Positions 2,086 to 64,000 of a stretch of 64,000 nucleotides of DNA are shown one piece after another. The position numbers and the translations under genes were made by a program. Source of the DNA: Anaeramoeba flamelloides. Taxonomy: Eukaryota; Metamonada; Anaeramoebidae. How positions within the stretch are numbered: position 1 is the stretch's first letter; each line of letters begins with the position of its first letter. The DNA is taken from NCBI GenBank assembly GCA_027625915.1, contig JANTQA010000018.1:286501-350500 (forward strand), written 5' to 3'. The notes below the pieces were generated by a model. That model saw only the letters and a list, made by a program, of their open reading frames with translations. It was not told the DNA's origin and did no database searches.

Positions 2086-2363
2086 TTTAACAAAGATCTC
2101 GCCAAATCCTCTAGTGCTCATTGGAATAAAGATCCTATTCACAAGTTCTACATTTTGTTATTATTGAAAAAGTCGTGATTACACACAAGAGTACTTTCCC
2201 CCTTAAATTAATTGAAAGGCCATTTAAGAGTAAAATGATAGATTTCACAATTCCTCAAAGGTAATACATAAATTTTTTTTCTGGTTGTACAAATCAAAAA
2301 CAAAAAATTGATAAGTAAAAATTGAAATAAAATTTCGTCTTATGAAGCTTATAAGAGAAAAAA

Positions 2364-29882: not shown

Positions 29883-31563
29883 TAATAGTATATTCCTTAA
29901 ATATTATCACTTTTATCCTTTTTGTCCTTTACAGTCAAAAGGTAAAACCATTTAATATTTAATTCACAAATTAAAAAATTATAATAGTTTATTCTCAACA
30001 AGACCAAATAAATTTCCATTTTCACTTATCTGTAAATTTTCCCAAAAAGTCGATTTTTCTCAACCTTCTTTTTCATTTTTTAATACAAGGTTGACATATT
30101 TCTGACATTTTTCGTTATATATACATTATTTCATTCTTATCTCACTGAATAAATATTTATGAGATTTCGGAACCTTGAAACACTCAGTAAAATTCACTTT
30201 TCTTAAATTTTCAATTTCACACTTAATCCTTAATAATGAGAGAGAATTAGATCATTAAAAATGTCAATACTCATTGGTTTCAAAAAGATCTTTTGATTTT
30301 TCTTTTTCTTCAAAAGAAAAAATATTATTAAGGATCTTTGAATAAAGAAATTGTCATCTATTTATACAAGATGGATTGTATTTTTTCTCAAGTTAAATTT
30401 CGTTTTGTAAAAACAAACATACTCTTGTGAACTTTTCATTTTCTTCAACAATTAAAAACCCAAAATTCGACATTTGTCAAAATAATGCATTCCCAAATGT
30501 TTAAATCTATGTCTCAAAATAAAAGACTTCTGTTTTTACGTTAAATAAGACATATATTTTAACCGATCAAAGAAACCTGACAATCAATCAAAAGTAAATT
30601 TAGTTTTGATTTAATCAAGTTCTATTAATTTCAAACTAAAGTCTAAAAATATAGTATCGAATTGGAAAATTTCTCTTCGAAAAAAAAGAAGTTAACTTTT
30701 AGGGAAAATTGTTATATCATCAAAAAAACAAAAAATTTAAAAAAACTGAGAAATTTACGAAAAATTTTGCAAAAATATGCATTCATAATTAAAATTTACC
30801 GAAAATATCATGGAATTTGTTTTCAAAATTGATTTGAACTTAGGTATACCACTGGGTAGTCAATTAGGTGTTACTTTGGAACAAGAAGAAAAAAAAGCAC
30901 TTATAAGATTTTGAAATTCAGACGATAGTTGTTTGACCAATATTATTGATCTAAGTATTTTTAAAAAAAAATTTTTAACAACAGTAAAAAGTTAAATTCT
31001 GAAAAACAAAATTTAATAAAGCCAACACGATTTATTGTAAGAACTATAAAAATGTCCTCTTTTTTCCCTGTTGATTTTTGGAGATCGATTTGGCTTATCA
31101 GGTTGTTTAATTTGTGATTGGTATTTAGGCACTTGTAGAAAAATACAAAATTTGTTTTTTCCCTTTCGCAAAATTATTTGGTACTTTAATGACTCTGACC
31201 CGAAAAAGAACTTCTTTTTTAAACAATTTTCGGTTCAGTTGTTTTTCAAAATTGTTTTCAAAAGCTCGTTCTTTTCAAACTTTTCTTTTCACTTTTGAAA
31301 ATTTTAAATAAAATATCATTTTTTATCAGAAGAAAACCTCAAATCACTATAAAATTGCTTCTCTTTTGATGAATAGTTAATTTTCTTCTTTTTTATTTTT
31401 TTACAAGAGAATCAAAGGTTTGGGAATTGTTCTATCGATTTGTATCATTTTGAAATACAGTCAAGAACAGAATTAATTCTATTGAACAATAATTCATTTA
31501 AATTAAATTGATTATCCCAATAATTCATTTTTTTTTAAATTTGAATTTTATTCAAAATAAAAT

Positions 31564-33862
31564 ATGAAAGTTTTTTTAATATTTGTAAGATCTAAATTAA
31601 AATTTTATTTTTTATTTTTGGCTTTGTACTTTTCCCACTTTTGGGTAAAAACAAATAAGGAAAAAACAAACTCCATAAAAAAATTAGTAATGACTCATAC
31701 CGACATATCAAACTATCTATGGAATTTTTTATTATCAATCAAATTTTTGATTCTGGTGTTGATCTATAGTTCTCTTTGGAATTTCTGTCACACAATTACC
31801 TACCAATACATCATACACCAATCATTAATTACAAAAAATTTTAAACTTGAAAATTAATATGAATTTATTCTTTATTTGTGATTCTTTTTTCTTATATTTA
31901 ATTAATTTTAAAATTTTGTTATAAAAATAAATCAAACAAAAAAAAAAAAATGAAAAATAGACTCTAATTATTGTCCTTTGTCTTTGTTCAGTCCATGTCG
32001 AAGGATCCAAAGGTAGAAAGTTCCAAAAGAAGAAAAATGCCTTCCAAATGGAACAAAAGCAATCAAGAGAAACAGGAGAGATGATTGTTCAATTGAAAGA
32101 CAATGTAAGTGTTGAAGAGTTTGTTGCTCAAACAGGGATGGTCTTTGTCAGGAAATTAAAATTACGAAAGGATTATTATCTATTCAAATATGATGTATTG
32201 AATCATAAGAAGGGCTTAGACTCAATTCCAGTGCTTGGCTTGGAAACAATGGCAGTTTCATATGAAAGGAACAAATATCAAAATAATGTACCAAAAGAAT
32301 ACACACCCTCTGATCCTCTTTTTCCTGATCAATTCCATTTAAAAAACACAGGTCAGTATGTCGGTCAAACAGGAGTGGACGTTAATGTGTCACCTGTTTG
32401 GGACCTAGGATACTTTGGAGAGGATATCACGATTGCCATTGTTGATGATGGGTTGTACCATTCCCACGAAGACTTGTCAAGCAATTTCTTGATGGAAGGA
32501 TCATGGGATTACTGTTTGGACAAGAATGATCCTGTTGGTACTAGTGATGATACACATGGAACCTCATGTGCAGGTGTTGCAGCAGCAACAGATGGAGATG
32601 GAGCTTGTGGATTAGGTGCGGCACCAAAGGCTAATCTCATGGGAAGAAGGTTTCTATGTTCGGGTACAACTGATGCAGATATGGTTGAAGCTTTAAGTGA
32701 CGAAAGTGAAGGTACAATCCATGTTTCTAGTAATAGTTGGGGACCAACAGGTTGTACAGAAGATGGATGTACCTATTATGAACAAATTCAAGTTGTAAAG
32801 GATGCTATTGTTGATGCAGTTCTTAATGGAAGAGATGGGAAGGGTATAGTGTTTGTATTTGCAGCAGGGAACGAAGCCGAATACGGGGGAAATATCAATC
32901 ATTATACATACGCAAAAATGGCTGAAGTCATTGGTGTAGCTGCAATCAATAACGATGGAGGGCACTCATATTATTCCAATGTAGGATCAGCAATTGTAGT
33001 TAGTGGAGTCTCATCTGGTTTGAACGCGAATGGCAATTACACAGGAATAAGAACAACTGATCGAGCATCAACAACAAGCTGCACAGATGAATTTGGGGGG
33101 ACATCAAGTGCATGTCCTTTAGTAGCAGGAGTGGTTGCACTCATTCTTGAAGCAAACCCAAAGTTAAATTATTGGCAAGTGCAACAAATTTTAATTGAAA
33201 CAGCCACTCGTGACGATTTACCAACAGAAAATTGGATTCAGAATTCAGAAGGATATCATTATCATCGTCACTTTGGATTTGGTTTAGTTGACGCGTCAGC
33301 TGCTGTTGAAGAAGCCTTAGAATGGGATGCTGAGCCTAATTTCCAAATGTTTGAAACAGATTTACAAACTGTCAACAAAAGCATCCCTGATAATGGTGGA
33401 ACTGATAACCCTGTTTTAGAAATCATCCAAGTTGAGAAAGACTACACAATTGTTGGTGGTGTTGAAATCCAAATCTCAATTACACACCCTTTCATTGGAG
33501 ATATTGGGATCATTTTGGAATCACCCTCGGGTACCTCAATAGATGTGGTCGTACCACATAACAATTGCAACGAGAATTTAGAAAAGTATCCTTTGGTTGC
33601 AAAGAATTTCTATGAAGAATCTTCAAAAGGTACCTGGACTATTCGTGTTTATGATGAAAGTCAGGAAGATGCAGGTACTTTTGATTCGTGGAAATTATCT
33701 TTTTATGGTATATCTGATAATTCAGATCCTTCTCCTACCATTACCCCTACCCCTACCCCCACCCCTGATCCTTCAGATGAAGCCAGTATTTCAAATTTCG
33801 AAAACAATTCATTTTTATTATCATTTTTCTTAGTAGCAATTATACAATTTATCATCTTTTAA
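31564..33862 (+). CDS. Kexin/furin-like proprotein convertase, copy 2
   Basis: Exon 1 is 31564-31584 (MKVFLIF, phase 0) and exon 2 is 31961-33862, giving about 640 residues. Joining the exons gives MKVFLIF directly followed by TLIIVLCLCSVHVEG, a textbook signal peptide. The propeptide is MIVQLKDNVSVEEFVAQ, and the S8 motifs IAIVDDGLYHSHEDL, DTHGTSCAGVAAA, FVFAAGNEAE and GGTSSACPLVAGVV are intact. The P domain includes ISITHPFIGDIGIILESPSG and GTWTIRVYDESQEDAGTFD. The C-terminus is a PTPTPTPDP stalk and a hydrophobic tail ending IIQFIIF, suggesting GPI anchoring at the cell surface or in secretory compartments. The propeptide end (YERNKYQNNVPKEY) lacks a Lys-Arg pair, unlike classical kexins. 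It groups with copy 3 in several segments. The frame looks whole, so it is likely functional. Confidence 0.9.
31585..31960 (+). other. Signal-peptide intron of convertase 2
   Basis: Donor GTAAGATC at 31585, acceptor AAAAATAG at 31960, phase 0, 376 bp. No MITE is inside, so this is close to the ancestral intron length. Around ATCAATCAAATTTTTGATTC it has the uninterrupted version of the site that is filled in copies 1 and 4. Confidence 0.75.
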
Positions 33863-38003: not shown

Positions 38004-38425
38004 TTAAGAAAATATTTACTAATTTTATTCCTTTTATAAAAAAAAAATAAAAAAAGGACCCGAAAAAGATTTTATTTTTTAAATCGTTTTCAATTCTGTT
38101 ATTTTTCAAAATTGTTTTCAAAATCTCGTTATTTTTAAACTTTTCTTTTCACTTTTGAAAATTTTAAATAAAATATCATTTTTTATCAGAAGATAACCTC
38201 AAATCACTATAAAATTGCTTCTCTTTTGATGAATAGTTGATTTTCTTCTTTTTTCTTTTTTTACAAGAGAAATCAAAGGTTTGGGAATTGTTCTATCAAT
38301 TTGAATCATTTTGAAAAATTTTAAAGAACATAATTAATTCTATTGAACAATAATTCATTGAAATTAAATTGATTATCCCAATAATTCATTTTTTTTTAAA
38401 TTTGAATTTTATTTCAAAATAAAAT

Positions 38426-40726
38426 ATAAAAAGTTTTTTTTGCTATTTTAAGATCTAAATTAAAATTTTATTTTTTTATTTTTCACTTTGTGCTTTTCCC
38501 ACTTTTGTAAAAGCAAATAGGGAATAACAAACTCCAATAAAAAAAAAAAAGGAAATAGCAAATATTGTCATATCAATAAGACCATGGGATTTTTTTACTG
38601 ATCTTTGAATTTTTGATTCTGGTGTTGATCTATAGTTCTCTTTGGAATTTCTGTCACTCAATTACCCACCAATATATGACACACCAATCATTAATTACAA
38701 TAAACTTAAAACATGAAAATTAATTTAAATTCTTTTATTGATTCCTTTTTCTGTATTTTTAATTAAATTTTGTCATTTTGATAAAAATAAAAAAACAAAC
38801 AAAACAAAAATAGACTCTAATTATTGTCCTTTGTCTTTGTTCAGTCCATGTCGAAGGATCCAAAGGTAGAAAGTTCCAAAAGAAGAAAAATTACATCCCA
38901 AATAGAACAAAAGCAATCAGGAGAATTAGGAGAGATGATTGTTCAACTGAAAGACAATGTAAGTGTTGAAGATTTTGTTGCTCAAACAGGGATGGTCTTT
39001 TTCAGGAAATTAAAATTACGAAAGGATTATTATCTATTCAAATATGATGAAGTGGAATCATAAGAATGGCTTAGACTCAATTCCAGTGCTTGGCTTGGAA
39101 ACAATGGCAGTTTCATATGAAAGGAACAAATATCAAAATAATGTACCAAAAGAATACACACCCTCTGATCCTCTTTTTCCTGATCAATTCCATTTAAAAA
39201 ACACAGGTCAGTTTGTCGGTCAAACAGGAGTGGACGTTAATGTGTCACCTGTTTGGGACTTGGGATACTTTGGAGAGGATATCACGATTGCCATTGTTGA
39301 TGATGGGTTGTACCATTCCCACGAAGACTTGTCAAGCAATTTCTTGATGGAAGGATCATGGGATTACTGTTTGGACAAGAATGATCCTGTTGGTACTAGT
39401 GATGATACACATGGAACCTCATGTGCAGGTGTTGCAGCAGCAACAGATGGAGATGGCGCTTGTGGATTAGGTGCGGCACCAAAGGCTAATCTCATGGGAA
39501 GAAGGTTTCTATGTGATTGTGTCACTTATGCCGAACTAGCTGAAGCTTTTAGTGACAAAAGTGAAGGTACAATCCATGTTTCTAGTAATAGCTGGGGACC
39601 AATGGGTTGTACAGAAGAAGATGGGTGTACCTATGATGAACAAAGTTTAATAGTAAAGCGTGTGATTGTTGATGCAGTTCTTAATGGAAGAGATGGGAAG
39701 GGTATAGTGTTTGTATTTGCAGCAGGGAACGAAGCCGATGAAGGCGGAGATATTAATCAGTATACATACGCAAAAATGGCTGAAGTCATTGGTGTAGCTG
39801 CAATCAATAATGATGGAGGGCACTCACAGTATTCCAACATAGGATCAGCCATTATTGTTAGTGGAGTCTCATCTGGTTTGAACGCGAAGGGCAATTACAC
39901 AGGAATAAGAACAACTGATCGAGCATCAACAACAAGCTGCACAGATGAATTTGGGGGGACATCAAGTGCATGTCCTTTAGTAGCAGGAGTGGTTGCACTC
40001 ATTCTTGAAGCAAACCCAAAGTTAAATTATTGGCAAGTACAACAAATTTTAATTGAAACAGCCACTCGTGACGATTTACCAACAGAAAATTGGATTCAGA
40101 ATTCAGAAGGATATCATTATCATCGTCACTTTGGATTTGGTTTAGTTGACGCGTCAGCTGCTGTTGAAGAAGCCTTAGAATGGGATGCTGAGCCTAATTT
40201 CCAAATGTTTGAAACAGATTTGCAAACTGTCAACAAAAACATCCCTGATAATGGTTGAAGTGATAACCCTGTTTCAGCAACCATCCAAATTGAGAAAAAC
40301 TACACAATTGTTGGTGGTGTTGAAATCCAAATCTCAATTACACATCCTTGCATTGGAGATATTGCAATCAATTTAGAATCAAACTCGGGTGCCTCAATAG
40401 ATGTGGTCGTAACACATAAGGATAAGCACTCAGATTTAGATGATTATCCTTTGGTTACAAAAAAATTCTATGGAGAATCTTCAAAAGGTACCTGGACTAT
40501 TCGTGTTTATGATGAAAGTCAGGAAGATGCAGGTACTTTTGATTCATGGAAATTATCTTTTTATGGAATTTCTGATAATTCAGAACCTTCTCCTACCCCT
40601 ACCATTACCCCTACCCCTACCCCTGATCCTGATCCTTCAGATGAAGCCAGTATTTCAAATTTCGTCAACAATTCCTTATTATTATCATTTTTCTTATTAG
40701 CAATTATCCAATTTATCATCCTTTAA
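38426..40726 (+). pseudogene. Kexin/furin-like convertase copy 3, broken
   Basis: Aligned with copies 2 and 4, this host gene has lost the exon-1 ATG and the GT donor (about 38426-38437, ATATAAAAAG...TTTTAAGATC). In the main exon (from 38814) it has one extra base in the propeptide leader (about 38892-38897) and another at about 39048 (GATGAAGTGGAATC versus GATGTATTGAATC). An in-frame TGA at 40256-40258 lies in the P domain, after which the frame continues to 40726. The catalytic motifs themselves survive (VDDGLYHSHEDL, DTHGTSCAGV, FVFAAGNEADE, GGTSSACPLVAG). The variable loop reads FLCDCVTYAELAEAF. Few other changes are seen, so silencing is recent or conversion with intact copies keeps refreshing it. 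Segments alternate between copy 2-like and copy 4-like sequence. Confidence 0.85.
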
Positions 40727-41730: not shown

Positions 41731-43819
41731 AAGAATACTCCCCAAAAATAATCCACAATAATAAAAAAAAAAAAATTCTTTCCTTAAAAAATCAAAAATA
41801 TTTAAGTTATCCTTCAAGTTCAACAATTTTAAAATTTAGGTCATTTACGAATTGCGTAACTAGATATTATTAAATAATAATAAAAAAAATTCAAATAAAT
41901 TTTGTACTTTATGTTTAAAAATAAAAAAAAGGAAATTCTTGAAAATATTGGCCAAATTTGAATGATCTGTCATTCCTATGAAAAAAATAGATTAATATTT
42001 TTAACAGAAAAGCTAAAACAATTAAATTTTAATGTTTTAATTTAAAGAATGTGGCAGTTTGAAATTATTTTCATTAATTGATAATTGTGAAATCTATGAT
42101 TTTATACTTTTATTTCTGAAAGGAAATTTAAGTCAAAGGGCATTTAGAGTGTAAATAACACTTCTTTCTTGATCAAAAAAAAATACTAAAAGGTATATTT
42201 CTTTTTGTAGAATACTTTACCGAAAATGATCAAATAAATTAACAATAAATGATAAATTAACATGCTATTAGTTTCTTAAAGTTTTTTTTATTCAAAAAGA
42301 AATTCCAAAAATAACTATCATATCAGAAAATTATACATTAAAAATAAAGTGATTTTTTATGAAGAATTATTCGAAAAAACAAAAAATTTAAAAATAGTTG
42401 AGAAAATTACAACAACATATAAAACAAATTGCTTTCGTCATTTTAAATTTTATTGAAATATCAATGGGCAATTTGATTTGAGGAATTGATTTGAACAAAG
42501 GTATACCATTGTATAAGGAATTGAATTTTTGATTAAAACAAGAAGAAAAAAAAAACAGGGATTATATTTTGAAACATGAGCTTGTAACTTTGAAAAGGCA
42601 CTCTTTTGATCACTAAATTAAATCTCATTTTATTACCTTTAGAAACCAAAATAATTACCAAAAAAAAGATGAAAAAAATGTATAGAAAAAGAATTTATTA
42701 CATTATTTTCTTAAAGAATCATTTTTAGACCCTCCAAATCCTAGATAACAATTATTTTTCACAGAAATCTTGTAACACATTCAGAATTTACATTAACAAT
42801 TACTCCTTAATTTAATAAATTTTTAGATCATTTTTTCATTCAAAAAGAATCAAAAAAAGATTATGGTTTTTAATGACAAAAAAAAATGTTCTGATTTTTT
42901 TATTTTGAAAATGCTATTTTAGTTAGACATAATCCCTAATTCTTTACAATTCTTTTTTGTTTATCAACAAGGACCAAATTTCAAGACACTATGTTCGGCC
43001 ACTCATCTCGTTGAAGTCCAAAATTTGAAGAACAAGCACTTGTAACTGAATTATTGGAATATGAAATTTAAAAGAGAAATATTTTTATCTCATTCTGGTT
43101 TTTTCGATTCTTCTTAATCTGTTTTAATTCGGATTTTTATTACAAATTCACATTATCAAAATATTTCATAAATAAAACAAATATCCCAAATTTCTTTCAA
43201 TTAGTGTTCTAGTAAAAGAGGAAAATGAAGAGAAAAAACTGTTTCAGTAATTATTCAAAGATTTGTCAAATGGGAAAAATCTTAACTTTTTTTTCCTTTT
43301 CCTTGATAAAAGAGGTGTACAAAATAAATAAGTTGGGGTTTATAGTTCTTTATTTGAGAAAGGTCTCCGAAAATGAACAGAAAATTTTTCAAATTTTTTA
43401 TTACAATTAAATGCTTCAATTTTCTTTCTTTTCGAAAAAAAAAATAAAAAAAAGGTCTCAAAAAGCTTTTATTTTTTGAAACCATTTTCGTTTGTATATT
43501 TTTCAAAATTGTTTTCAAACGCTCATTCTTTACAAACTTTTCTTTTCACTTTTGAAAATTTTAAATAAAATATCATTTTTTATCAGAATAAAACCTCACA
43601 ATCTCTACAAAATTGCTTCTCTTTTGATGAACAGTTATTTTTCTTCTTTTTTATTTTTTTGAAGAGTATCAAAGGTTTGGAAATTGTTCTATCGATTTAA
43701 ATCATTTTGAAAAATTGTAAAGAACAGAATTAATTCTATTTAACAATAACCCATTTAAATTTAATTGGTTATCCCAATAATTCATTTTTTTTTAAATTGA
43801 ATTTTATTCAAAATAAAAG

Positions 43820-46264
43820 ATGAAAGTTTTTTTAATATTTGTAAGATCTAAAATTTAATTTATTTTTTTTTTTTTGCATTTTTTTCCAGCCTTTGTGTAA
43901 CGACAAAGAGGGAATAACAAACCCCAATTTGTAAAAAACAAAAGGAAATAGCCCAGACAGCCATAACAACAAGACCATGCATTTTTATATTGATCTTTTT
44001 TTGATAAATGGGAAAAAATTATCATTAAATTTTCCATTTCTTTTCTTTCCTAAATAGAGTTCTCAAAGAAGTCACAAATTGCAACTTATTTCTTTTGACG
44101 ACTCAATCTATAAAAGGAAAAATATGGAAAATAATTAAAATTTTACCCATTTTGAATTCAAATACTTGTAATCAATCAACTTTTTGATTCTGGTGTTGAT
44201 CTACAATAGTCTTTGGAATTTCTGTCACACAATTACCTACCAATAAATCACCTTTTACCAACCACCAATAACAAAAAACATGAAAAATTAAATTAATTTA
44301 TTTAATTCCTTTTTCTTCTTTTTAATTAAATTTTGTCATTTTGATAAAAATAAACAAAAACAAAAAAAAAAAATGAAAAATAGACTCTAATTATTGTCCT
44401 TTGTCTTTGTTCAGTCCATGTCGAAGGATCCAAAGGAAGAAAGTTCCAAAAGAAGAAAAATGCCTTCCAAAAGGAACAAAAGCAATCAAGAGAAACAGGA
44501 GAGATGATTGTTCAACTGAAAGACAATGTAAGTGTTGAAGAGTTTGTTGCTCAAACAGGGATGGTCTTTGTCAGGAAATTAAAATTACGAAAGGATTATT
44601 ATCTATTCAAATATGATGTATTGAATCATAAGAATGGCTTAGACTCAATTCCAGTGCTTGGCTTGGAAACAATGGCAGTTTCATATGAAAGGAACAAATA
44701 TCAAAATAATGTACCAAAAGAATACACACCCTCTGATCCTCTTTTTCCTGATCAATTCCATTTAAAAAACACAGGTCAGTTTGTCGGTAAAACAACAGTG
44801 GACGTTAATGTGTCACCTGTTTGGGACTTGGGATACTTTGGAGAGGATATCACGATTGCCATTGTTGATGATGGGTTGTACCATTCCCACGAAGACTTGT
44901 CAAGCAATTTCTTGATGGAAGGATCATGGGATTACTGTTTGGACAAGAATGATCCTGTTGGTACTAGTGATGATACACATGGAACCTCATGTGCAGGTGT
45001 TGCAGCAGCAACAGATGGAGATGGCGCTTGTGGATTAGGTGCGGCACCAAAGGCTAATCTCATGGGAAGAAGGTTTCTATGTTCGGGTACAACTTATGTC
45101 GAACTAGCTGAAGCTTTAAGTGACGAAAGTGAAGGTACAATCCATGTTTCTAGTAATAGCTGGGGACCAATGGGTTGTACAGAAGAAGATGGATGTACCT
45201 ATGATGAACAAAGTCAAGTTATAACGGATGCTATTGTTGATGCAGTTCTTAATGGAAGAGATGGGAAGGGTATAGTGTTTGTATTTGCAGCAGGGAACGA
45301 AGCCGATGAAGGCGGAGATATTAATCAGTATACATACGCAAAAATGGCTGAAGTCATTGGTGTAGCTGCAATCAATAACGATGGAGGGCACTCATATTAT
45401 TCCAACATAGGATCAGCAATTGTTGTTAGTGGAGTCTCATCTGGTTATAACGGGGATAATGATTATATCGGAATAAGAACAACTGATCGAGCATCAACAA
45501 CAAGCTGTACGAATGATTTTGGGGGGACATCAAGTGCATGTCCTTTAGTAGCAGGAGTGGTTGCACTCATTCTTGAAGCAAACCCAAAGTTAAATTATTG
45601 GCAAGTGCAACAAATTTTAATTGAAACAGCCACTCGTGACAATTTACCAACAGAAAATTGGATTCAGAATTCAAAAGGATATCATTATCATCGTCACTTT
45701 GGATTTGGTTTAGTCGATGCATCAGCTGCTGTCGAAGCAGCCTTAGAATGGGATGCTGAGCCTAATTTCCAAATGTTTGAAACAGATTCACAAACTGTCA
45801 ACAAAAACATCCCTGATGATGGTGGAAGTGATAATCCTGTTTCAGCAACCATCCAAATTGAGAAAAACTACACAATTGTTGGTGGTGTTGAAATCCAAAT
45901 CTCAATTACACACCCTTTCATTGGAGAGATTGGGATCATTTTGGAATCACCCTCGGGCACCTCAATAGATGTGGTCGTAACACATACAGATTACAACTCG
46001 GATTTAACTGATTATCCTTTAGTTGCAAAAAATTTCTATGGAGAATCTACAAAAGGTACCTGGACGATTCGTGTTTATGATGAATATGAACTGGACGAAG
46101 GTACTTTTGATTCATGGAAATTATCTTTTTATGGAATTTCTGATAATTCAGATCCTTCTCCTACCCCTACCCCTGATGCCTCAGGCAGTATTTCCAATTT
46201 TGGAAACTATTCCTTATTATTATCATTTTTCTTATTAGCAATTATTCAATTTATCATCTTTTAA
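43820..46264 (+). CDS. Kexin/furin-like proprotein convertase, copy 4
   Basis: Exon 1 is 43820-43840 (MKVFLIF) and exon 2 is 44384-46264, about 633 residues. Splicing is phase 0 with donor GTAAGATC and acceptor AAAAATAG. The order is signal peptide (continuing TLIIVLCLCSVHVEG), propeptide, S8 catalytic domain with all four key residues (VDDGLYHSHEDL, DTHGTSCAG, AAGNEADEGG, GGTSSACPL), then P domain (ISITHPFIGEIGIILESPSG, GTFDSWKLSFYG). A shorter PTPTPDASG stalk and the hydrophobic tail follow. It differs from the other copies mainly in surface-loop segments: FLCSGTTYVELAEAL, SSGYNGDNDYIGIR, and DEYELDEG in the P domain. It shares the intron MITE and the NSKG / DSQTV segments with copy 1, but other segments with copy 3. 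The frame is whole, so it is likely active. Confidence 0.9.
43841..44383 (+). other. Signal-peptide intron of convertase 4
   Basis: 543 bp, phase 0, GTAAGATC...AAAAATAG. It is longer than the 376-bp intron of copy 2 because a CTGG-family MITE (43990-44168) lies inside. The conserved intron segment TTTTTGATTCTGGTGTTGAT is shared with copies 2 and 3. Confidence 0.75.
43990..44168. mobile_element. MITE family CTGG, copy inside convertase 4 intron
   Basis: Diverged termini (TTGATC...; ...TTCAAATACTTG) with TA on each side. The interior CTAAATAGAGTTCTCAAAG matches the convertase 1 copy, and TTTTACCCATTTTGAATTCA matches the 163-bp copies. Shared position with copy 1 implies insertion before those two genes separated, or transfer by conversion. 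Confidence 0.65.
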
Positions 46265-53956: not shown

Positions 53957-54116
53957 ATCAAAAATAATAAAAATAAAAGATAATTAATAGAATAAGAAAA
54001 AATCTTAAAAAATAATTAAAACAGAAGATTTTTTTTTCTTTATCTGTAACTCTGTCTTGATTATTTTTACCTTTTACCTTGATTTGTTTCCACTTGTTCT
54101 TGATTATTTTTACTTT

Positions 54117-57100
54117 CTAATTCTCTAAAGATATGAAAAATTGATAAGCTGAAATTGTTTTCAAAATACTTATTTCTTTTGGGAAATGTTCTGTGAACCA
54201 AGGAATTTCTTCATTAAAATTATTTGTTAACTCTGGAATAATCTGTTCCAAACATTGGAAAAGTGTGTATCTGCGCATGTGTTCACTTAAGCGATTATTG
54301 ATCATATATTTCCAAGCCTTGATAAGTTCAATTTTTTTGGTTTTTTGATAACAATTTTTCAACTGAATTTTTTCTTGTTTAGTAAGCTTTTGACCAAATT
54401 TGGATGCCAATTTTCTGAATGGGTTTTGTTGGTTGAATTTGATTTGGTGGTGAACAAAGAGAAGATGTTTCATTTGCACTTTTTTTGTCAAGGTCTGAGA
54501 ATTAGCTAACAATTTAAGTGATAAGTCATCTGATGAGGCCAATTTCTTTTGGAAGAAATCATACCAATTAACGCTGTGGAAGACACGGCGCGACTCAGGG
54601 TCTAACTTGACAAACCAACGAATTGTGATTTCTAAATCTCTGACGAGAACATCGAGTTTGTCTTGGAGCTCAGACATCAAGTCGTCCATGAATGATCTTG
54701 GCAATTCCTCTTGATAGCGGTCACTTTTTTCCAACTTGATAATTGTAATATCCTTATCATAAGTTCCCTTATATGGGAAATCATTAATGTTGAGAGTCAA
54801 AATTTGCTTTCCAGAGAGCAGGGTCAAATTTAAAAAGTCTTCAAGAACAGAAAAGGTTGTTGGCTTAAATATGGCACGATCATTAATGAACTTTTCAACT
54901 GCTTGGGATTCAATTCCCGTGACGATTTCCCAGTTTACGGATTGAAGTGTTGGATACATATTCGGCACGGAAACTATCACCTTGTCCTTTGCCTTCTTTT
55001 GATTTTGCTTGAGAACCCCTTCTCTTGTTTGGAACTCCTTTATGAAATTATTTTGGAAGTGTATTATTTGCCAACACACACGAGACAAAAAGAGAGATTC
55101 ATTCTTCGGGCCTGCAAGCAAGCTTTTGATACTTTGCTTTGGATCTAATTTCCAATTTTCGTCAATGTTGAAATCTTCAACACCATGGCAAATAGCCCTG
55201 ATTTTGGGCCAAAAGACATCCCACACAAATTTAAAATCATTCCATAAATTATCTATTTTGGCTTTTGAGTCATTTTCATACATCTCCTCTAAGGCTTGTT
55301 GTATTGAGATTTCGATTGACTCTTCTTCAGTTATTTCACAAGAATATTTCTGATACAGTAGTGATATAAAATGATGAAAGCTTTTAAATTTTTTCAACGC
55401 ACTAAACTCATTGATGTGCTCGATATAATATTGTGTGACTTTTAATTTCTGTTCTTGCTCTTTCTGATCCAGTTTTTCCTTTTCATCATTCAAATTTGAA
55501 ATAAATTTATCCAAATTCCATTTTTCAGGTACTTTCCATTGCCATCCGGCCTTTTTGTCCCGCTTTAACCATTTGTCAATTGTCGTTTCCTTATTCCTTG
55601 ATTTATTTTTCATTTCATTAATATCAAGCCAGATTCCATTCTTTTCCAAAGAACACAATCGGTGGATGATCTTTTCAAATTGATCTCTCCCCATTGGTAT
55701 TTTCTCAAAGTCTTTCAAATTGTGAGAAAATTCATTTTTGATCTTTGTTAACCGATTGAGAAAGGAATGGTAGAATTCACAAAAGTCATCAAAATTTTTA
55801 TTTGACAACAGCTGTATGATCACATCTAAGTCTTTGAATATATGATTTACAATTCTTCCAAGTAAAATTTGCTTTTTGCTTGGGATTGACAACGTTCTGT
55901 TCATCAATTTTGTTTTAACAGTGTTGAAATATTGGTCGGAAATTGAAGAGCCAGTTAAAATTAGGAAATGCGTCATCAACCTAATCATACGATAACTTAA
56001 AGAATTAATAGTTCTGATTTTGGTTCCAATGTTTGTGTCAATTTCTTCAAAGACAGCATATCCAAACAAATCCGGGATTTTTTCGACATCCTCCAATGTT
56101 GCTCTTCGGTTTCCTTTTGCGAATATGTGATCTTTCCCACCAATTATTTCTTTACATCCTGGACATATTTTTTCTTCCATGGGCTTATGACAGTTATTGA
56201 TGTGATAAACATGGTCATTTGGACAGCATGCGTATTCCTCGACATGCTCTAGTGCATGAATTTTCAAAGTATCTCCTTGCATTGAAGGCCAACAACTTTG
56301 CGATAATATATTAACACACTCGGATTCTGAATCTAGCATTTCTTCAGAGATTAAGGAACTTAATGGTTCAATTCGAACCTGGCTTGAGAACACTTCAACC
56401 GTGTGAAGAATTAACCTATTTAATGAAATTAGATTAAATTTGAATTCACTTGTTTGCTTTTGAGGTAATAATTGCTCATCATTTAATTTTGATAATATGT
56501 TTGGGCTTTGCGCTAACAACTTAATAATTCTTGAGCCCTTTTCCAATTCTCTTTTTATGGGATTTTTGGATAGCAGAAATTGAAATCTGGAAATGAGATT
56601 ATCCTGTGGCAGATTTAATTGAAGTTGCAATGCTTGCTCACTTGAAGACAATAATTTATCAAAATATTCTCTCACAATTGGAATTCCCATAAGAGAATTA
56701 ACAAAATTTGGGTCTCTGTCAAAAAGTAATTGATATAAGTTTTTTCCATATTTTGCTTTTAAAGATCGGAATAAAAACATGAGAATGTTTTTATCCTTGT
56801 AAAATTTTATATCCAATTGTTCTGGTTCTGTGAGAATTATTTCTTTTAATTTGACGATGTTTCTTAAATTTTTAAAAGTATAGGGTGTTTCAAATATATC
56901 TTGCAATTCAAATGATTTGAATTGATCTTTCTTGGGAAGATTATTAATTATGATATCTAGAGATAAACAGCTTGATAAAAATTTTTTTGCTGAATGATTA
57001 AAGATTTGATTGAGAGATTCATCTTCCGAATTATTAGCATTGTCTCCCAAATCTTCTCCAGAATAAGAAGAAGAATAATCATTATATTCTTTTGGATCAT

Positions 57101-60100
57101 ATTGACTAATATCATTTTGAGAAAAATTATAATCATATTTGGATGTTAAATCAATAATTTCACTTGTAATTTTGTTTTGAATATCGGAGTTATTTGTTTT
57201 TTGAATTGCCTTATTGAGAATTTTTTGAAAAAAATGATGAGAAAACTGAAAATTTGTACCAAAAGCACCTAAAGATATTTTGTTTTTACCACACGAAACC
57301 ATGATAATTTGTTCCACTAACTGTAAAAAAACTTGTTTATTTTTATTGATCTTGTCCAGAAATAATGTCAAAATTTCTTCGACTGTCCACCCAAAAACAT
57401 AAAGAATGGATTGGACTTCATTTTGACAATCTACCAGTTCCTTTTCATTTATTTTAATGAGATGTTTAAAGATATTGTTGTTATTAATTTCTTCAAAGCA
57501 AATTGGACAAACATTATCTTCCGTTTCCTTGAGGTAAAATATGTTATTTATTTCATTAGGGCATCGGGCTAATTCTGATGATTTTTTTTGTGTAATAATT
57601 ACATCTGTAATGTCACATTTAAATTTTGGATTTAGAAGATATAACTGAGTAACTTTCCAAACACCTTTGATAATTTTTGGAATGACTTTTTGTAAGTTCT
57701 TGGTTTTATCCATTCTGGGGATGGTCTTTAAAATATTTCGAAAAGTATTAATTTCAATTTTGGTATTTTTGAAAAGAATAGATATTAATAAATGAACAAT
57801 TAAAATTTGGATCCATTGAAGGGTCATTTGTGGATTATTTAACATTTCAAGAATGTGATCCATTGTATTTCGAACTTTGAGAATTTGAAATATAAAATTA
57901 TTTTTTCGTGTTTCTTTTTGAAAGTTTTCTTTTTGAGTTTTTCTTAAATTTCTAAGGAAATTTTGAGTGATCTTTTCAAGAAGTTTAAACAATGTCATAG
58001 ATTGGTTGATTTCAGGAATTTCTTTGGTATTTTGTAAATTTCTGGTTGTTGGATAATACTCTTTTTGAATTTCATATGGATCTTCTTCTAAAGATTCTTC
58101 AAAATCATAAGGATCAAACTCTTCATTATTTTTTTCCTTGTCTTTGTTCTGTTTTATTGAATATTCTCTCGAATTTGAGTACTCATAATTGTCTTCATTG
58201 AGAGATTCATAATCTTCTTGTTCTGAATATTCTCTAGAATCTGAAGAGTAATGATAATTGTCATCATTTATGAAATTATTGTCTCTTTCTAAATTATCAT
58301 TATCAGAAGAAGAGTGTCTTGTTTCTTTCCTTTTCTTCTTCTTCTTCTTCTTTTTAAATATTGTTTTTTGATCAATATTTGGATCAATATTTAAAAGTTT
58401 AATTATCCACTTTAGAGTTTTGAGATTTTCATGAATAAGGTGATATATTTCCGAAAGGGAAAGTTCAATAAGAGGTTGTATTCTTTGCTCACCTTCTCTC
58501 ATCATTATTTGGATGATTATATAAAAGGATTGTTTATTTCCATTGAAAATTCTTTTCATTGCCTGTATCTCAAGAGGTGAAAAAAGTATTTTCTCAAAAT
58601 CATTTAATAAGGTTTGTAGAAGAATTGTGATTTCTTCTCGTGTAATTTCATTTTTGAATATTTCTTTTAATATTTCCAAAAAGGGGTTTTTAATCCAATT
58701 TATATTTTGAGGTATTTGTAAATCAATTTCACACAGATGATATAGGTAAAAGCTAAAGGGGAAATTGCATGAATATTGTTGATTTTGCTCAATGATTTTG
58801 TTTGGAGGATCGGGGTAAATCTGTAATAAATCATTGTAAAGATCAATCAACTTTTTCTCGGTCAATCCCTGAATGCTTCGGTTTAGGAGATTGAAATTAT
58901 TATTTTGATCTAAATGGTTGACAACAATGGAAAAAATATAGGAAAGTTTATCTGAAAAGTGTGTTTGTAAAAGATTCTTAAAGGAACTCGAGTCAAGTTT
59001 TTTCTTGTTATTAAAGGAATCTCTTAATTCATTTTGGAAAAATTCTTCCAAGTTCCAAAAGCTTTTGTCGTGATTAAATTCTTGAACTTTCTTCATCACT
59101 TGATTGATGATAATATCTTGAGTTTGTTGATCAATTAGCAATTTTTGATATATTGATGTTAACTTTTTGAGCCCCTGCTCAAAGTGAGCATTTAAGGATG
59201 GCAGCTTTGATAAAATTAATGGGATATTATTATTTATAAAGACTTTTAAATGCTTTTTTTTTTCGATCATATTGGAACACAATTGGAAAAAGTTCTTTAT
59301 AAGATAATCTTTAATGGTGAAATAAGAAGGAAGAAGATCATCAACAAAATAATATTCCCAATTCCTTTCAAAGCTAAAACTAAATTCATTGGTATTTGGG
59401 TTTGGGGACAAATGAACAACAAAGACGATTTTCCCTTGAATTATTGGTTGTCCTGTTGATTTCTTGTTTTTTTTTTCCTCATTGAATGTATTTTTCTTTT
59501 GTTGTTTTTTTACTAATTTTTGAAGAACTTTATTTACTAAATATTTAGTTTTGATAAATAAATCATTTCTTTTTTGTCCATCTATTTGCAAAAAGAAATA
59601 TCCTTTTTTATTAATTATATTTTCTTGGAGTTTATGTTTAAGCTTTTGAATTAATTCAGATTCTCGTTCAATTAACCATAACTTGACAAGATTATCTCTA
59701 TTCTTATTTAAATATTCTTCTGGGATAAAAAACCTGTCGTCAAGTTGCTTTGGAGAAAAAGTAGATACAATTATTTGTTTAAATGTGTTTTTTTGTGATG
59801 ATATCTTTTCCAAAAACCTTGGGAAGTCTGCATATAAATAATTGTCAAGACATTCCTTGTAAAGCTTTTCATTGTCTTTTTTAAGAAAGATCATTGAAGA
59901 TGGTTTTAAAATTTGTAAGAGTAAGCGTCTGATTTTTCTTTTCACCTTTGGCAATTTAACCTGCTTTCGTTTTTCTTTTTGACTTTGAATTAACTCATCT
60001 TTGTTGTTGAATGAATCGAATTGATCATCAGAACTTTCGTCATCAGAAACTCCATCATCAGAACTTCCACCATCAGAACTTTCATCATCAGAACTATCAT

Positions 60101-63100
60101 TTTCCTTTTCTAACTCCATTTCCTTGTCCGAGGACTCTTTCTCAATTTCGGTTTCAATTTCAAAAGGTAAATTAAAATTTAGAAACTTGTTCTCTTTTTT
60201 TTTTTCCTTTTCATTTTCATTTTCATTTTCCCTTTCTTTTTCTTTTCCAATTTGCAAATCAATTTCTTCATCAATTACTTTTAATACTAAAGAAGGTAAT
60301 AAATCATTATGGGAAATAAAAAAAAAGTCTCTTAGCTTTCTATTGGTGTACGCACCTTTAACAATTTTTTCTGCATATTCCAAAATATCAATTGAAATAT
60401 CATTTTTATAAATATAATCTTGTGCTGTCAGTTCTTGTTTTTCAAACCGATTTAAAAGAGGAGCATCTAAGTCATTGATTGCACGATTTTGGTCAATTAA
60501 CACAATAATTCTAAAACGGTTGTCAACTGGAAACGATTCTGTCGAAGGTCCAAAGGCTATTCGAGTCCAAAATTTGTTAAATTTATAGTCGTAATGCTGG
60601 TTGAGAACATCATAAAGTGGAGCAAAGAGATCATCACCAAAGACAAGGATAACCCGATCGTTTGTCATTAAAGCGTTTGCAATGGTTCTCAAATTTTGAG
60701 AAATTGAAAACGATAGAATATCAGAGGGAAACCGCGAGCCAAAGATGACGTGTGTTTTTGATTTACTTTGTGAATAGGATTTTGAATTCTTGATCAAATT
60801 TTCAACAATTGGGAGAACAGTCATATTCTTTGTGAGGATCATTAAATGCCGAGCAAGCCCGTTTTGATCACCTTTTAAATTTTCCTGAATCAAGCTCTGT
60901 GGGTTTGGGATTGGCTGGTTGATAAGCTTAAAATGTGTCTGTAGCATTGCTTGCAACATCTCTTTTCTTGAACCAAAATTTCTACATATGGATTTCCAAA
61001 CAAACATTTCTTCAGGGTTGATGTCAAACTTTTTATTTTTCATACATATGGGATCTTTGAAGGATGATTGGCTTTCCGAGTATTTGAATTTCTCTTGATA
61101 GCTTACAATGCCTTTGATTGTTGTATAGAAATCTCTCAATCCAAAATAGGGCCTTTCTTGCATTTTATAGATTTCTTGATAGGATTCTGTAACCATTGCA
61201 ATTAAATGCTTTGGAATTGTTGGGGCAATTTGCCGGGCTGTTGTTACAAGATCCAATTTATTTGGGCTTGTTCTTTGAAGTAAGATCACTCGGTTCATTT
61301 GAGCTGCGTCCAATGCCCAATTGGAGAGCCCAATGACATTGACACAATTTTTTACTTCCTTGTCTATGTTTTCCAATTCTTGATGAAGCACTTTCAATCC
61401 AGGCGCAAGTCCGACTTCATCAAGAACCAAAACAGAAAGAAAGCCCTCTTCCTTAAACGTACGAGCATTTTGGAAAACATTTGTGACCCCTTCTTCGGTG
61501 GAAGCTGGGCTACATTGATAAAAAAATTTATGGATTCTTGGAAGTTTCCATTCCTCGATGATCGGTTCTTCTGATGTCCGTGAAAATCGCGAGAGAAGTA
61601 ACTCAACAGCAAGTGATTTGGAAGTTCCTGGTTTGCCAATGATAAAAATTGCAATCTTGTTGATTAAACAGATAAAAGTTACCAAAATATTTTCGGTTAA
61701 TCCCTGATTTAATGCTATTTTTGCTTTATTATCATGGAAAGTGTTCTGTTTTTTATTTGGAAACGTTTGCAAATTCAATTTCATTGCAAATCTCAGACGC
61801 ACTTTATATATAAATTTTTCAAAATAATCATTTGTCTTTGGTCTGGTTAATTTCAAGCCCTTTTCGTTCATAAAGCTAAAGATTTGCTTCCAAAATTCAG
61901 TTCTCATCTGTGTATCAAGTTTACAATTATAACAAACAAAAAGTGACATAACAGTTGCCTTTAAGACTTGTGGCCCATATAAGTTTTTAACCAAATTGAT
62001 TCCAATTTCCCCACAAAAAAAATTAAACAATTGAATTGCTCTTCTGCAATCTCGAAGAGAAGCAGTGTTCATTGGGTCGGAAAAGAAATCTTTGAGAATC
62101 TGGTGTGATTTAAAAATTAGTTGCGAAAGCTCTGTAACAAAATCCGCGACATCACATTTTTCATTTTTAGCTAAAGACGAAGACAAAAGTTTTTTATTGA
62201 GCGCCAATGACACCATTCTTTCAATATAAATTCTTTCACTGTCAGGATTTAGTATTCCAAAATCAAAAATGTATTCCCAAAATAATTTTGGAAGCGGATG
62301 TACCCTATAGGCATAATATTTTTGTTCATTTTGTTTGTTTTTCATCATAACTTTTTGTCGGCTTTTTTCAAAGCCCATTTTTTGAGTGACGCTGGATGAG
62401 TGTGATAATAACCCGGAACCTTTATGATACTCTAAGCCGACGGTTTTTGGAACACTTTTTACAGTCCGATAAGGATTAATTGCCCCAATGATACGAATTT
62501 CACGTGGAACATGTTCCCCTTCAATTCTTTGATCAATAAAAATTTCCTTAAAGACCGAGATTGTTTCTGGGGGCGCTGTATTGAATTCGTCAAAAAAGAT
62601 ATGTACCATTGTTCCTTTTCGAAAGTCTTGAATTTGTTTTTTCATAAAATGGATAATTTCATCTGGAGTAGTGTTAGCATTGACATTAAAAATAAACAAA
62701 CATCTATCAAGTATTTTTTCTACCAAATATTTGATCAACGATGTTTTGCCAACACCCGTTTCAGACATCAAGATTACAGGAATGCCGCAATTAAGTCTGT
62801 ATTCAATATATACCATTTTGAGGAAATTGTCTGGGGTTAATACATATTGAGAATTCCCCTTAGTCATTTTTTTGCGAAGATTCTCAACCTTTTTCTTTAA
62901 TTCTTCATTAGGAATGGATTGTACAATTTTGTTTAATATATGTATTGAAAAATCCAGATTGGCCATTTTTGGATTTTTGGGATCATTTAAGCTTTTCTGA
63001 TTAAGGTCAAAGCCATTTCTTGTCAGGTCGTAGTATATCTCTTTGTTAGTTTGTGTATCTTGTGGGAAATATTTGGTAAGATATTCAGCCTTTGTTGCTA

Positions 63101-64000
63101 GTATTTGCAAGCCATTGATTGATCTTTCGAGTTCATAACCCAAACCCCCAGATACGGGTATATTTTCAAAATTATATTTGTAGATCAAAAGTGCCTGTGA
63201 TCGATTTTCCCAAACAGAAAAGTTTTCATTGTAAGAGAAATTTTTCTTAGTCCAGTCAAGCGATCGATCGATGGAATGGAATGAAGTATCAAGAATAAGA
63301 TCTGCGAGGCGTCCGGTAATAGTAATTCCGTGGTCTCCCCAAACAAATGGCCAGAAAAGACTCCAATCAGCTAATAATTTGATATGTTCAAAGACAAAAT
63401 GAATAAAATTCATGAAAAAGCAAGCAGTAATTTTCATACTTTCTCGGCTTAATGAACGCTGCTTAATTTCATTCGATATTAATAGGAAAATATTTTCCTT
63501 TGTCTCTTTAAAATCTTGAGGAACTTCACCTTTTTGATAGAACTTTCGAAAGGTGGACATTTTGCCAGAAAATGATTTGTTTCTGAAACATTGAACGAAA
63601 TAGGAAACAAGTAAAAGTTCATTATTAACAGTTAATTCAGGGAAATCCTTTCCAAAAATGGGAGGCGTTTCGATCGTTTGTAATTTCAATGAATCAACAC
63701 CAAAATCAGCTTTGATGCAATTGGTCAACTTGAGGATATAATATTTATCTAACACATGGGCATTTTCCAGTCGATTTTGATCTTTTATTGACAAATTTGG
63801 CAATTCAAAAGAACACCTTGTGTTTTCTTGTAAATGGAAAACGTGTCCTGTTTGAGGGTCTTCAAGATAATTAAAAATAAACAGAGACCATATGAGATAA
63901 TTAATTTCATCAGAGATGCATGAAGCCAAATCGAAATGAAGCAGAATATTTTTTTTGTTTGAATTATTATGAATTTTAAACGAAGAAGACACACTTGACG
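54117..64000 (-). CDS. RNF213: RNF213-like giant AAA+ E3 ubiquitin ligase, 5' end beyond window
   Basis: One uninterrupted frame of about 3,290 codons from the right edge to TAG at 54117; no start is visible, so it is N-terminally partial. Numbering is from the codon at 63992. The first AAA+ module has Walker A ETGVGKTS (about 410) and Walker B VHIFFDEFNT (about 465). The second has Walker A GKPGTSKS (about 786) and Walker B VLVLDEVGLA (about 855). This pair of motifs is characteristic of AAA3 and AAA4 of RNF213. Ser/Asp/Glu-rich linkers lie at about 1245-1330 and 1880-1970. At about 2161 only CPICFEE remains of a RING. At about 2583-2625 there is an RZ-type zinc finger (CCPNDHVYHINNCHKPMEE, then ICPGCKEIIGGKDH), as in RNF213 and ZNFX1. 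In animals RNF213 is a dynein-like cytosolic ligase that ubiquitylates bacterial LPS through the RZ finger. About 600 residues of helical C-terminus follow. Vertebrate RNF213 is about 5,200 residues, so much of the N-terminal arm is outside. Confidence 0.92.
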   Translation of the reverse strand, partial: SSVSSSFKIHNNSNKKNILLHFDLASCISDEINYLIWSLFIFNYLEDPQTGHVFHLQENTRCSFELPNLSIKDQNRLENAHVLDKYYILKLTNCIKADFGVDSLKLQTIETPPIFGKDFPELTVNNELLLVSYFVQCFRNKSFSGKMSTFRKFYQKGEVPQDFKETKENIFLLISNEIKQRSLSRESMKITACFFMNFIHFVFEHIKLLADWSLFWPFVWGDHGITITGRLADLILDTSFHSIDRSLDWTKKNFSYNENFSVWENRSQALLIYKYNFENIPVSGGLGYELERSINGLQILATKAEYLTKYFPQDTQTNKEIYYDLTRNGFDLNQKSLNDPKNPKMANLDFSIHILNKIVQSIPNEELKKKVENLRKKMTKGNSQYVLTPDNFLKMVYIEYRLNCGIPVILMSETGVGKTSLIKYLVEKILDRCLFIFNVNANTTPDEIIHFMKKQIQDFRKGTMVHIFFDEFNTAPPETISVFKEIFIDQRIEGEHVPREIRIIGAINPYRTVKSVPKTVGLEYHKGSGLLSHSSSVTQKMGFEKSRQKVMMKNKQNEQKYYAYRVHPLPKLFWEYIFDFGILNPDSERIYIERMVSLALNKKLLSSSLAKNEKCDVADFVTELSQLIFKSHQILKDFFSDPMNTASLRDCRRAIQLFNFFCGEIGINLVKNLYGPQVLKATVMSLFVCYNCKLDTQMRTEFWKQIFSFMNEKGLKLTRPKTNDYFEKFIYKVRLRFAMKLNLQTFPNKKQNTFHDNKAKIALNQGLTENILVTFICLINKIAIFIIGKPGTSKSLAVELLLSRFSRTSEEPIIEEWKLPRIHKFFYQCSPASTEEGVTNVFQNARTFKEEGFLSVLVLDEVGLAPGLKVLHQELENIDKEVKNCVNVIGLSNWALDAAQMNRVILLQRTSPNKLDLVTTARQIAPTIPKHLIAMVTESYQEIYKMQERPYFGLRDFYTTIKGIVSYQEKFKYSESQSSFKDPICMKNKKFDINPEEMFVWKSICRNFGSRKEMLQAMLQTHFKLINQPIPNPQSLIQENLKGDQNGLARHLMILTKNMTVLPIVENLIKNSKSYSQSKSKTHVIFGSRFPSDILSFSISQNLRTIANALMTNDRVILVFGDDLFAPLYDVLNQHYDYKFNKFWTRIAFGPSTESFPVDNRFRIIVLIDQNRAINDLDAPLLNRFEKQELTAQDYIYKNDISIDILEYAEKIVKGAYTNRKLRDFFFISHNDLLPSLVLKVIDEEIDLQIGKEKERENENENEKEKKKENKFLNFNLPFEIETEIEKESSDKEMELEKENDSSDDESSDGGSSDDGVSDDESSDDQFDSFNNKDELIQSQKEKRKQVKLPKVKRKIRRLLLQILKPSSMIFLKKDNEKLYKECLDNYLYADFPRFLEKISSQKNTFKQIIVSTFSPKQLDDRFFIPEEYLNKNRDNLVKLWLIERESELIQKLKHKLQENIINKKGYFFLQIDGQKRNDLFIKTKYLVNKVLQKLVKKQQKKNTFNEEKKNKKSTGQPIIQGKIVFVVHLSPNPNTNEFSFSFERNWEYYFVDDLLPSYFTIKDYLIKNFFQLCSNMIEKKKHLKVFINNNIPLILSKLPSLNAHFEQGLKKLTSIYQKLLIDQQTQDIIINQVMKKVQEFNHDKSFWNLEEFFQNELRDSFNNKKKLDSSSFKNLLQTHFSDKLSYIFSIVVNHLDQNNNFNLLNRSIQGLTEKKLIDLYNDLLQIYPDPPNKIIEQNQQYSCNFPFSFYLYHLCEIDLQIPQNINWIKNPFLEILKEIFKNEITREEITILLQTLLNDFEKILFSPLEIQAMKRIFNGNKQSFYIIIQIMMREGEQRIQPLIELSLSEIYHLIHENLKTLKWIIKLLNIDPNIDQKTIFKKKKKKKKRKETRHSSSDNDNLERDNNFINDDNYHYSSDSREYSEQEDYESLNEDNYEYSNSREYSIKQNKDKEKNNEEFDPYDFEESLEEDPYEIQKEYYPTTRNLQNTKEIPEINQSMTLFKLLEKITQNFLRNLRKTQKENFQKETRKNNFIFQILKVRNTMDHILEMLNNPQMTLQWIQILIVHLLISILFKNTKIEINTFRNILKTIPRMDKTKNLQKVIPKIIKGVWKVTQLYLLNPKFKCDITDVIITQKKSSELARCPNEINNIFYLKETEDNVCPICFEEINNNNIFKHLIKINEKELVDCQNEVQSILYVFGWTVEEILTLFLDKINKNKQVFLQLVEQIIMVSCGKNKISLGAFGTNFQFSHHFFQKILNKAIQKTNNSDIQNKITSEIIDLTSKYDYNFSQNDISQYDPKEYNDYSSSYSGEDLGDNANNSEDESLNQIFNHSAKKFLSSCLSLDIIINNLPKKDQFKSFELQDIFETPYTFKNLRNIVKLKEIILTEPEQLDIKFYKDKNILMFLFRSLKAKYGKNLYQLLFDRDPNFVNSLMGIPIVREYFDKLLSSSEQALQLQLNLPQDNLISRFQFLLSKNPIKRELEKGSRIIKLLAQSPNILSKLNDEQLLPQKQTSEFKFNLISLNRLILHTVEVFSSQVRIEPLSSLISEEMLDSESECVNILSQSCWPSMQGDTLKIHALEHVEEYACCPNDHVYHINNCHKPMEEKICPGCKEIIGGKDHIFAKGNRRATLEDVEKIPDLFGYAVFEEIDTNIGTKIRTINSLSYRMIRLMTHFLILTGSSISDQYFNTVKTKLMNRTLSIPSKKQILLGRIVNHIFKDLDVIIQLLSNKNFDDFCEFYHSFLNRLTKIKNEFSHNLKDFEKIPMGRDQFEKIIHRLCSLEKNGIWLDINEMKNKSRNKETTIDKWLKRDKKAGWQWKVPEKWNLDKFISNLNDEKEKLDQKEQEQKLKVTQYYIEHINEFSALKKFKSFHHFISLLYQKYSCEITEEESIEISIQQALEEMYENDSKAKIDNLWNDFKFVWDVFWPKIRAICHGVEDFNIDENWKLDPKQSIKSLLAGPKNESLFLSRVCWQIIHFQNNFIKEFQTREGVLKQNQKKAKDKVIVSVPNMYPTLQSVNWEIVTGIESQAVEKFINDRAIFKPTTFSVLEDFLNLTLLSGKQILTLNINDFPYKGTYDKDITIIKLEKSDRYQEELPRSFMDDLMSELQDKLDVLVRDLEITIRWFVKLDPESRRVFHSVNWYDFFQKKLASSDDLSLKLLANSQTLTKKVQMKHLLFVHHQIKFNQQNPFRKLASKFGQKLTKQEKIQLKNCYQKTKKIELIKAWKYMINNRLSEHMRRYTLFQCLEQIIPELTNNFNEEIPWFTEHFPKEISILKTISAYQFFISLEN

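What the first reader, a model, noticed from the sequence alone, without database searches (positions are those of the whole stretch)
55800..58000. RNF213-type ligase with a collapsed RING but an intact RZ finger
The protein keeps both ATPase Walker pairs and a full RZ finger, but the RING position shows only CPICFEE with no following H-x2-C or C-x2-C set. Work on animal RNF213 assigns LPS ubiquitylation to the RZ finger rather than the RING. A protist homologue that has lost the RING would be a natural experiment supporting that, and would point to an old bacterial-sensing function.
Basis: partly seen in the sequence, partly recalled or inferred. Interest (0 to 1): 0.72.

Follow-up and report, generated by a model that had tools for sequence, protein, structure and literature searches.

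The report
RNF213-like giant ligase without its RING
A eukaryotic microbe appears to carry a giant RNF213-like immune ligase that has kept its motor and its catalytic zinc finger but not the RING domain that gave the protein its name, which fits laboratory evidence that the RING is not the catalytic part.

Summary
Window 54117-63998 (minus strand) is one ORF of 3293 codons, cut at its N-terminus by the window edge. It is an RNF213 homologue (phmmer E 3.6e-85, AAA core; Pfam RZ E 3.3e-11). All four RZ zinc ligands and the catalytic Cys/His pair known from mouse are present with identical spacing (C2592, H2596, C2603, C2612, C2615, H2624). At the RING position only CPIC (2164-2167) remains; the next CxxC is the one in the RZ finger, 448 residues on. 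None of four RING half-patterns tested occurs in the minus-strand frames of 56001-59000, so no missed RING exon was found there. Pfam lists no RING family at the site, while the mouse RING scores 6.6e-8. Most likely this is a natural counterpart of the laboratory delta-RING mutant, working by RZ-based ubiquitin transfer. Loss rather than never-gained is favoured by CPIC at about the right distance, but unproven: no relatives were obtained (the genome search did not complete), and the rest of the E3 module was not detectable by sequence. Bacterial sensing is untested; a RING-bearing paralogue elsewhere is not excluded. New variant of a known kind; moderate interest.

The parts
54117..63998 (-). 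RNF213-like protein, residues 1-3293 of the part inside the window plus stop; N-terminus beyond the window edge
   Evidence: single ORF; phmmer to solved RNF213 E 3.6e-85
60246..62864 (-). AAA core stretch aligned to RNF213 (residues 379-1251)
   Evidence: 9jw1_A 2021-2877
62742..62765 (-). Walker A of the first AAA unit with a full pair, SETGVGKT (412-419)
62583..62603 (-). Walker B of the same unit, HIFFDEF (466-472)
61614..61637 (-). Walker A of the second AAA unit with a full pair, GKPGTSKS (788-795)
61404..61430 (-). Walker B of the same unit, LVLDEVGLA (857-865)
57396..57551 (-). RING position (residues 2150-2201): no RING; only C2164, C2167, H2179, C2191 as possible ligands
   Evidence: placed by distance, not by alignment
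57498..57509 (-). CPIC (2164-2167), the only CxxC between residues 689 and 2612; probable RING remnant
56127..56225 (-). RZ finger: C2592, H2596, C2612, C2615 (zinc) and C2603/H2624 (catalytic dyad)
   Evidence: roles from PMC12075652
54117..56126 (-). C-terminal part after the RZ finger; residues up to 2759-2766 align with RNF213, the rest (place of the E2-docking CTD) was not detectable by sequence
   Evidence: aligned part; no RNF213 hit; 701 residues after the first RZ cysteine vs 697 in mouse

Best explanation
A divergent RNF213 homologue of a eukaryotic microbe that lacks the RING, probably by loss from an ancestor that had one (CPIC is what is left). It is proposed to work as animal RNF213 does without its RING. 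ATP binding by two AAA units switches on the E3 module. A ubiquitin-loaded E2 docks on the C-terminal domain. Ubiquitin passes to C2603 of the RZ finger, with H2624 as base, and then to the substrate. Shown here by sequence: AAA core with both Walker pairs, RZ with every zinc ligand and the dyad, absence of a RING ligand set. Inferred: activity, E2 docking, loss rather than primary absence, substrate.
For: AAA and RZ homology. RZ spacing identical to mouse C4451/H4455/C4462/C4471/C4474/H4483. No RING family listed at the site up to E 10, against 6.6e-8 for the mouse RING in the same call (HMMER's filters drop most matches above about 0.1), nor in the 165-residue piece or the whole protein. CPIC lies between AAA core and RZ where the RING lies in mouse: 918 residues (714 unmasked) after the AAA match vs 750, 427 vs 503 to the first RZ cysteine, then 701 vs 697 to the C-terminus. 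Removal of the RING is tolerated in mouse, where it is inserted between two helices of the E3-back (PMC7311170).
Against: Four pieces covering residues 1241-2590 and 2626-3293 gave no RNF213 match by phmmer at E<=10, so placing CPIC at the RING site rests on distances, not on an alignment. Beyond CPIC the ligand overlay gives no support for RING ancestry: 3 of 8 positions are Cys or His at 2164, while three other places in the protein (2561, 2589, 2744) reach 4 of 8. The published E2-docking residues of the CTD were looked for by eye only and not located. No relatives were obtained and the genome search did not complete. Moyamoya mutations in the RING argue that the RING matters in animals (PMC12440826). 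The AF2 model (mean pLDDT 38.4) neither supports nor refutes.
Confidence: 0.68

Rival explanations
1. The RING was not simply lost but reorganised: C2164, C2167, H2179 and C2191 hold one zinc, as a small C2HC knuckle that still does a structural or binding job.
For: Four possible ligands in 2164-2191. H2179 falls at CxxC-x11-H, a spacing of C2H2-like fingers (family spacing recalled). Weak zf-Di19 hit E 0.0053 and RNF220 0.031 for the 52-residue piece; no hit of any of the 10 CPIC-keeping shuffles was as low (lowest 0.028).
Against: Both hits are below the curated cut-offs. Of 10 shuffles that kept CPIC, 6 had some hit, among them zf-Di19 once (0.028) and RNF220 once (0.064), so CPIC alone explains much of the score. 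H-x11-C is unusual for such fingers (recalled).
Confidence: 0.15
2. The lineage never had a RING; RNF213 acquired it elsewhere, and CPIC is a coincidence.
For: No homologue alignment ties CPIC to the RING; the RING is an insertion in the E3-back; the ligand overlay at 2164 is no better than elsewhere in the protein.
Against: CPIC is expected 0.0017 times per protein of this composition and lies close to the expected distance.
Confidence: 0.2
3. The gene model or assembly is at fault: a deletion or missed exon hides a normal RING.
For: No transcripts or second assembly were available.
Against: The frame is uninterrupted for 3293 codons, so any error would be an in-frame deletion; none of four RING half-patterns is in the minus-strand frames of 56001-59000.
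Confidence: 0.05
4. Compatible with the best explanation but weakening what follows from it: this is a diverged paralogue, and a RING-bearing RNF213 exists elsewhere in the genome.
For: No second copy is in the window; the rest of the genome could not be searched.
Against: None obtained.
Confidence: 0.3

Closest known systems
RNF213 (mysterin), vertebrate giant AAA-E3 ligase
   Same: AAA core with two Walker pairs; RZ finger with all zinc ligands and Cys/His dyad at identical spacing; about 700 residues after the RZ
   Different: No RING; low-complexity inserts between AAA core and RING position; E3-back, most of the E3-shell/core region and CTD not recognised by phmmer; N-arm and CBM20 outside the window
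Laboratory delta-RING mouse RNF213 (Ahel 2020, PMC7311170)
   Same: AAA and RZ kept, no RING
   Different: Engineered, with a Gly-Ser linker; here CPIC and a non-RING stretch remain
ZNFX1 RZ finger
   Same: RZ-type zinc finger with the Cys/His dyad (stated in PMC12075652)
   Different: ZNFX1 is an SF1 RNA helicase with NFX1 fingers; this protein has an RNF213-type AAA core

Membership tests
RNF213 | dynein-like AAA core with two active ATPase units | tested here: met
   phmmer 3.6e-85 over 379-1251; both Walker A/B pairs align; the count of six units was not tested
RNF213 | RZ finger with four zinc ligands and catalytic Cys/His dyad | tested here: met
   roles
RNF213 | C4HC3 RING inserted in the E3-back | tested here: not met
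   no RING Pfam family listed up to E 10 at the site while the mouse RING control gives 6.6e-8; 3 of 8 ligand positions Cys/His, one of them His for Cys, in the ungapped overlay on mouse 3947-3985. So it is an RNF213 homologue that fails this feature, not a canonical member
RNF213 | E3-back/E3-shell scaffold | tested here: inconclusive
   phmmer pieces gave no RNF213 match apart from 2580-2766 around and after the RZ; AF2 uninformative
RNF213 | C-terminal domain that docks the E2 (mouse F5093, W5097, Y5106, E5108) | tested here: inconclusive
   length fits (701 vs 697 residues after the first RZ cysteine) but no match; residues not located (by eye only)
RNF213 | N-arm with CBM20 domain | not testable with these tools
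   would lie beyond the window edge
RING E3 ligase | two-zinc cross-braced RING domain | tested here: not met
   by sequence; not tested by a usable structure model

The most novel reading that the evidence does not exclude
RING loss was selected. In mammalian cells a bacterial effector (IpaH1.4) seizes the RNF213 RING to have the ligase destroyed, and RNF213 without RING escapes this (PMC12440826). A microbe that meets bacteria constantly could have shed the handle while keeping the RZ-based ligase, making this an arms-race relic.
Probability: 0.06. Interest if true: 0.85.

Novelty: new variant of a known kind. Interest (0 to 1): 0.5.

Why it matters
The role of the RNF213 RING is described as elusive: it contributes to no known ubiquitylation, yet Moyamoya mutations hit it and a bacterial effector targets it. 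A natural homologue without it, with every catalytic RZ residue kept, is independent evolutionary evidence that AAA plus RZ is the working enzyme. It would help date when RNF213 gained or lost its RING and give a system for testing what the RING adds. The inference is only as good as the missing comparison with relatives and paralogues.

Tried and rejected
Relatives: the search for related loci with P0001, the AAA alignment A1 and the RZ alignment A2 in viral contigs, and with A1 and A2 in genome contigs. Candidate stretches were 377, 232, 23, 319 and 100; confirmed relatives 0 in each of the five scans. Genome contigs is prokaryotic, so this was expected. A second RNF213 copy in the window: none by tblastn at E<=1.

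Structure: AF2 on residues 2040-2345 without alignment gave mean pLDDT 38.4, no residue at 70 or above, so no fold search was made.

Degenerate C2H2/Di19 finger instead of RING: weak Pfam hits (zf-Di19 0.03, RNF220 0.24; on a shorter piece: 0.0053 and 0.031, plus an RE_BstXI hit 0.18). Ten shuffles that keep CPIC: 6 of 10 had hits, among them zf-Di19 0.028, RNF220 0.064 and zf-RING_UBOX 0.053 (over CPIC and the next six residues); none reached 0.0053. Kept as a rival at low odds. A sub-cutoff DUF7044 hit (0.0054) was not followed.

Organism: my guess from composition and style was Anaeramoeba (Metamonada). It is untested; Anaeramoeba material was looked at and nothing rests on it. tRNA and Rfam scans of the window found nothing.

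Full report
What is there. The minus strand of window 54117-63998 is one open frame of 3293 codons that runs off the window edge, so the N-terminus is missing. Against solved structures its residues 379-1251 match the AAA core of RNF213 with E 3.6e-85, and residues 2580-2766 match the RZ region. All nine distinct PDB sequences that matched at E<=0.01 are named RNF213. Pfam finds ZnF_RZ-type at 2591-2632 (3.3e-11) and AAA families. Both Walker A/B pairs that RNF213 has are kept.

The RZ finger is complete. In mouse RNF213 the zinc ligands are C4451, H4455, C4471 and C4474 and the catalytic dyad is C4462/H4483 (PMC12075652, passages). Here C2592, H2596, C2612, C2615 and C2603/H2624 have identical spacing. 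Human numbering C4505, H4509, C4516, C4525, C4528, H4537 (PMC11549300, passages) gives the same spacing.

The RING is not there. In mouse the RING ligands span 3947-3985 (sequence from 7oik_A). Laid ungapped on CPIC, 3 of the 8 ligand positions here hold Cys or His (C2164, C2167, and H2179 in place of C3962), with 4 identities in 39. Between 2164 and 2240 there are five Cys/His in all. The protein has three CxxC: 689, 2164, 2612; a generous eight-ligand pattern found nothing in it. In the three minus-strand frames of 56001-59000 none of four further RING half-patterns occurs, and CxxC occurs only at CPIC and in the RZ finger. One full RING pattern was sought in all six frames of 54001-64000 and not found. 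So no exon that could restore a RING was found there. The Pfam call that gives the mouse RING zf-C3HC4 at 6.6e-8 lists no RING family for the window piece up to E 10, with the caveat that HMMER's filters drop most matches above about 0.1.

What the Pfam scan does list. The 52-residue piece hits zf-Di19 (0.0053), RNF220 (0.031) and RE_BstXI (0.18), all below cut-off. Of 10 shuffles that keep CPIC, 6 had hits, among them zf-Di19 (0.028), RNF220 (0.064) and zf-RING_UBOX (0.053); none was as low as 0.0053. So CPIC carries much of the score, and a one-zinc knuckle of C2164, C2167, H2179 and C2191 remains a low-odds rival.

Is CPIC a remnant? Expected chance occurrence is 0.0017 per protein of this composition. 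Its place fits: from the end of the AAA match 918 residues (714 after masking low complexity) against 750 in mouse, then 427 against 503 to the first RZ cysteine, then 701 against 697 to the end. This is a distance argument. Against it: beyond CPIC the ligand overlay is no better than elsewhere in the protein, where three places (2561, 2589, 2744) reach 4 of 8. Four pieces covering residues 1241-2590 and 2626-3293 gave no RNF213 match at E<=10, and single-sequence AF2 failed. I therefore hold 'no RING by sequence' as shown and 'RING lost' as likely (roughly two in three).

How it would work. In mouse RNF213 the RING sits between the last two helices of the E3-back, and replacing 3941-3999 with a five-residue linker leaves auto-ubiquitylation intact (PMC7311170, passages). 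RZ mutants fail to ubiquitylate Salmonella, Listeria and Toxoplasma vacuoles while RING deletion has no effect (PMC11549300). The E2 docks on the CTD, the RZ cysteine accepts ubiquitin, and ATP binding in the AAA core activates (PMC12075652). The window protein keeps the AAA and RZ parts of this scheme by sequence. E2 docking is inferred only: the region has the right length but no detectable similarity, and the contact residues, looked for by eye, were not located. Substrate and bacterial sensing are not tested.

Against over-reading. Patients' mutations suggest that the RING matters in animals, and a Shigella effector uses it to destroy RNF213, which RNF213 without RING escapes (PMC12440826, passages). 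One RING-free homologue shows at most that a lineage can do without it, not that the animal RING is idle. A RING-bearing paralogue in this genome is not excluded: the own-genome search did not complete in 28 attempts. The organism is not identified. That it is a eukaryote is inferred from RNF213 itself and from DUSP, B-box and proprotein-convertase genes nearby.

Literature. Nine searches with RNF213 or RZ terms listed no paper whose title or abstract start describes a natural RNF213 without a RING. The lists (25 of 33; 15 of 883; 20 of 21) were capped, and none of the 15 papers listed holds RNF213, so that search says nothing. The only paper of the library holding both 'RNF213' and 'RING-less' is PMC7311170, on the engineered mutant. 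The library lacks most subscription papers and all bioRxiv preprints. I saw passages of seven papers (PMC7311170, PMC11549300, PMC12440826, PMC12075652 with its section 10, PMC11550330 with its section 10, PMC8486878, PMC11959080), none in full. The original LPS paper (Otten 2021) was not read; its result is taken from the papers that cite it.

Verdict. Observation confirmed; interpretation partly supported; a new variant of a known kind, interest 0.5.

Noticed in passing
window 20727-22631, 31961-33862, 38817-40726, 44384-46264 (+): Four tandem copies of a subtilisin/kexin-like proprotein convertase. The first has Peptidase_S8 plus P_proprotein; a piece of the third has Peptidase_S8. Copies 2 and 4 and the main piece of copy 3 are 88.8-89.3% identical to copy 1 in protein. 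The third copy looks broken: a stop ends its frame at 40258 and its 5' part matches in pieces in other frames.
   Followed up: partly
window 31197-31424, 38057-38284, 43454-43681: A 228-base repeat upstream of copies 2-4 of the convertase, at spacings (6860, 5397) near those of the genes (6855, 5568).
   Followed up: no
window 2355-2783 (+): ORF with a DUSP domain (4.9e-14), a domain known from ubiquitin-specific proteases (recalled).
   Followed up: no
window 10254-11331 (+): B-box zinc finger gene (5.3e-9 in the second ORF), apparently in two ORFs, 10254-10592 and 10639-11331; an intron between them is likely by eye, not tested.
   Followed up: no
P0001 residues 1242-1335, 1340-1366, 1483-1513, 1865-1889, 1917-1947 (within window 58158-60275, -): Low-complexity stretches between the AAA core and the RING position, flagged by a simple entropy mask.
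   Followed up: no
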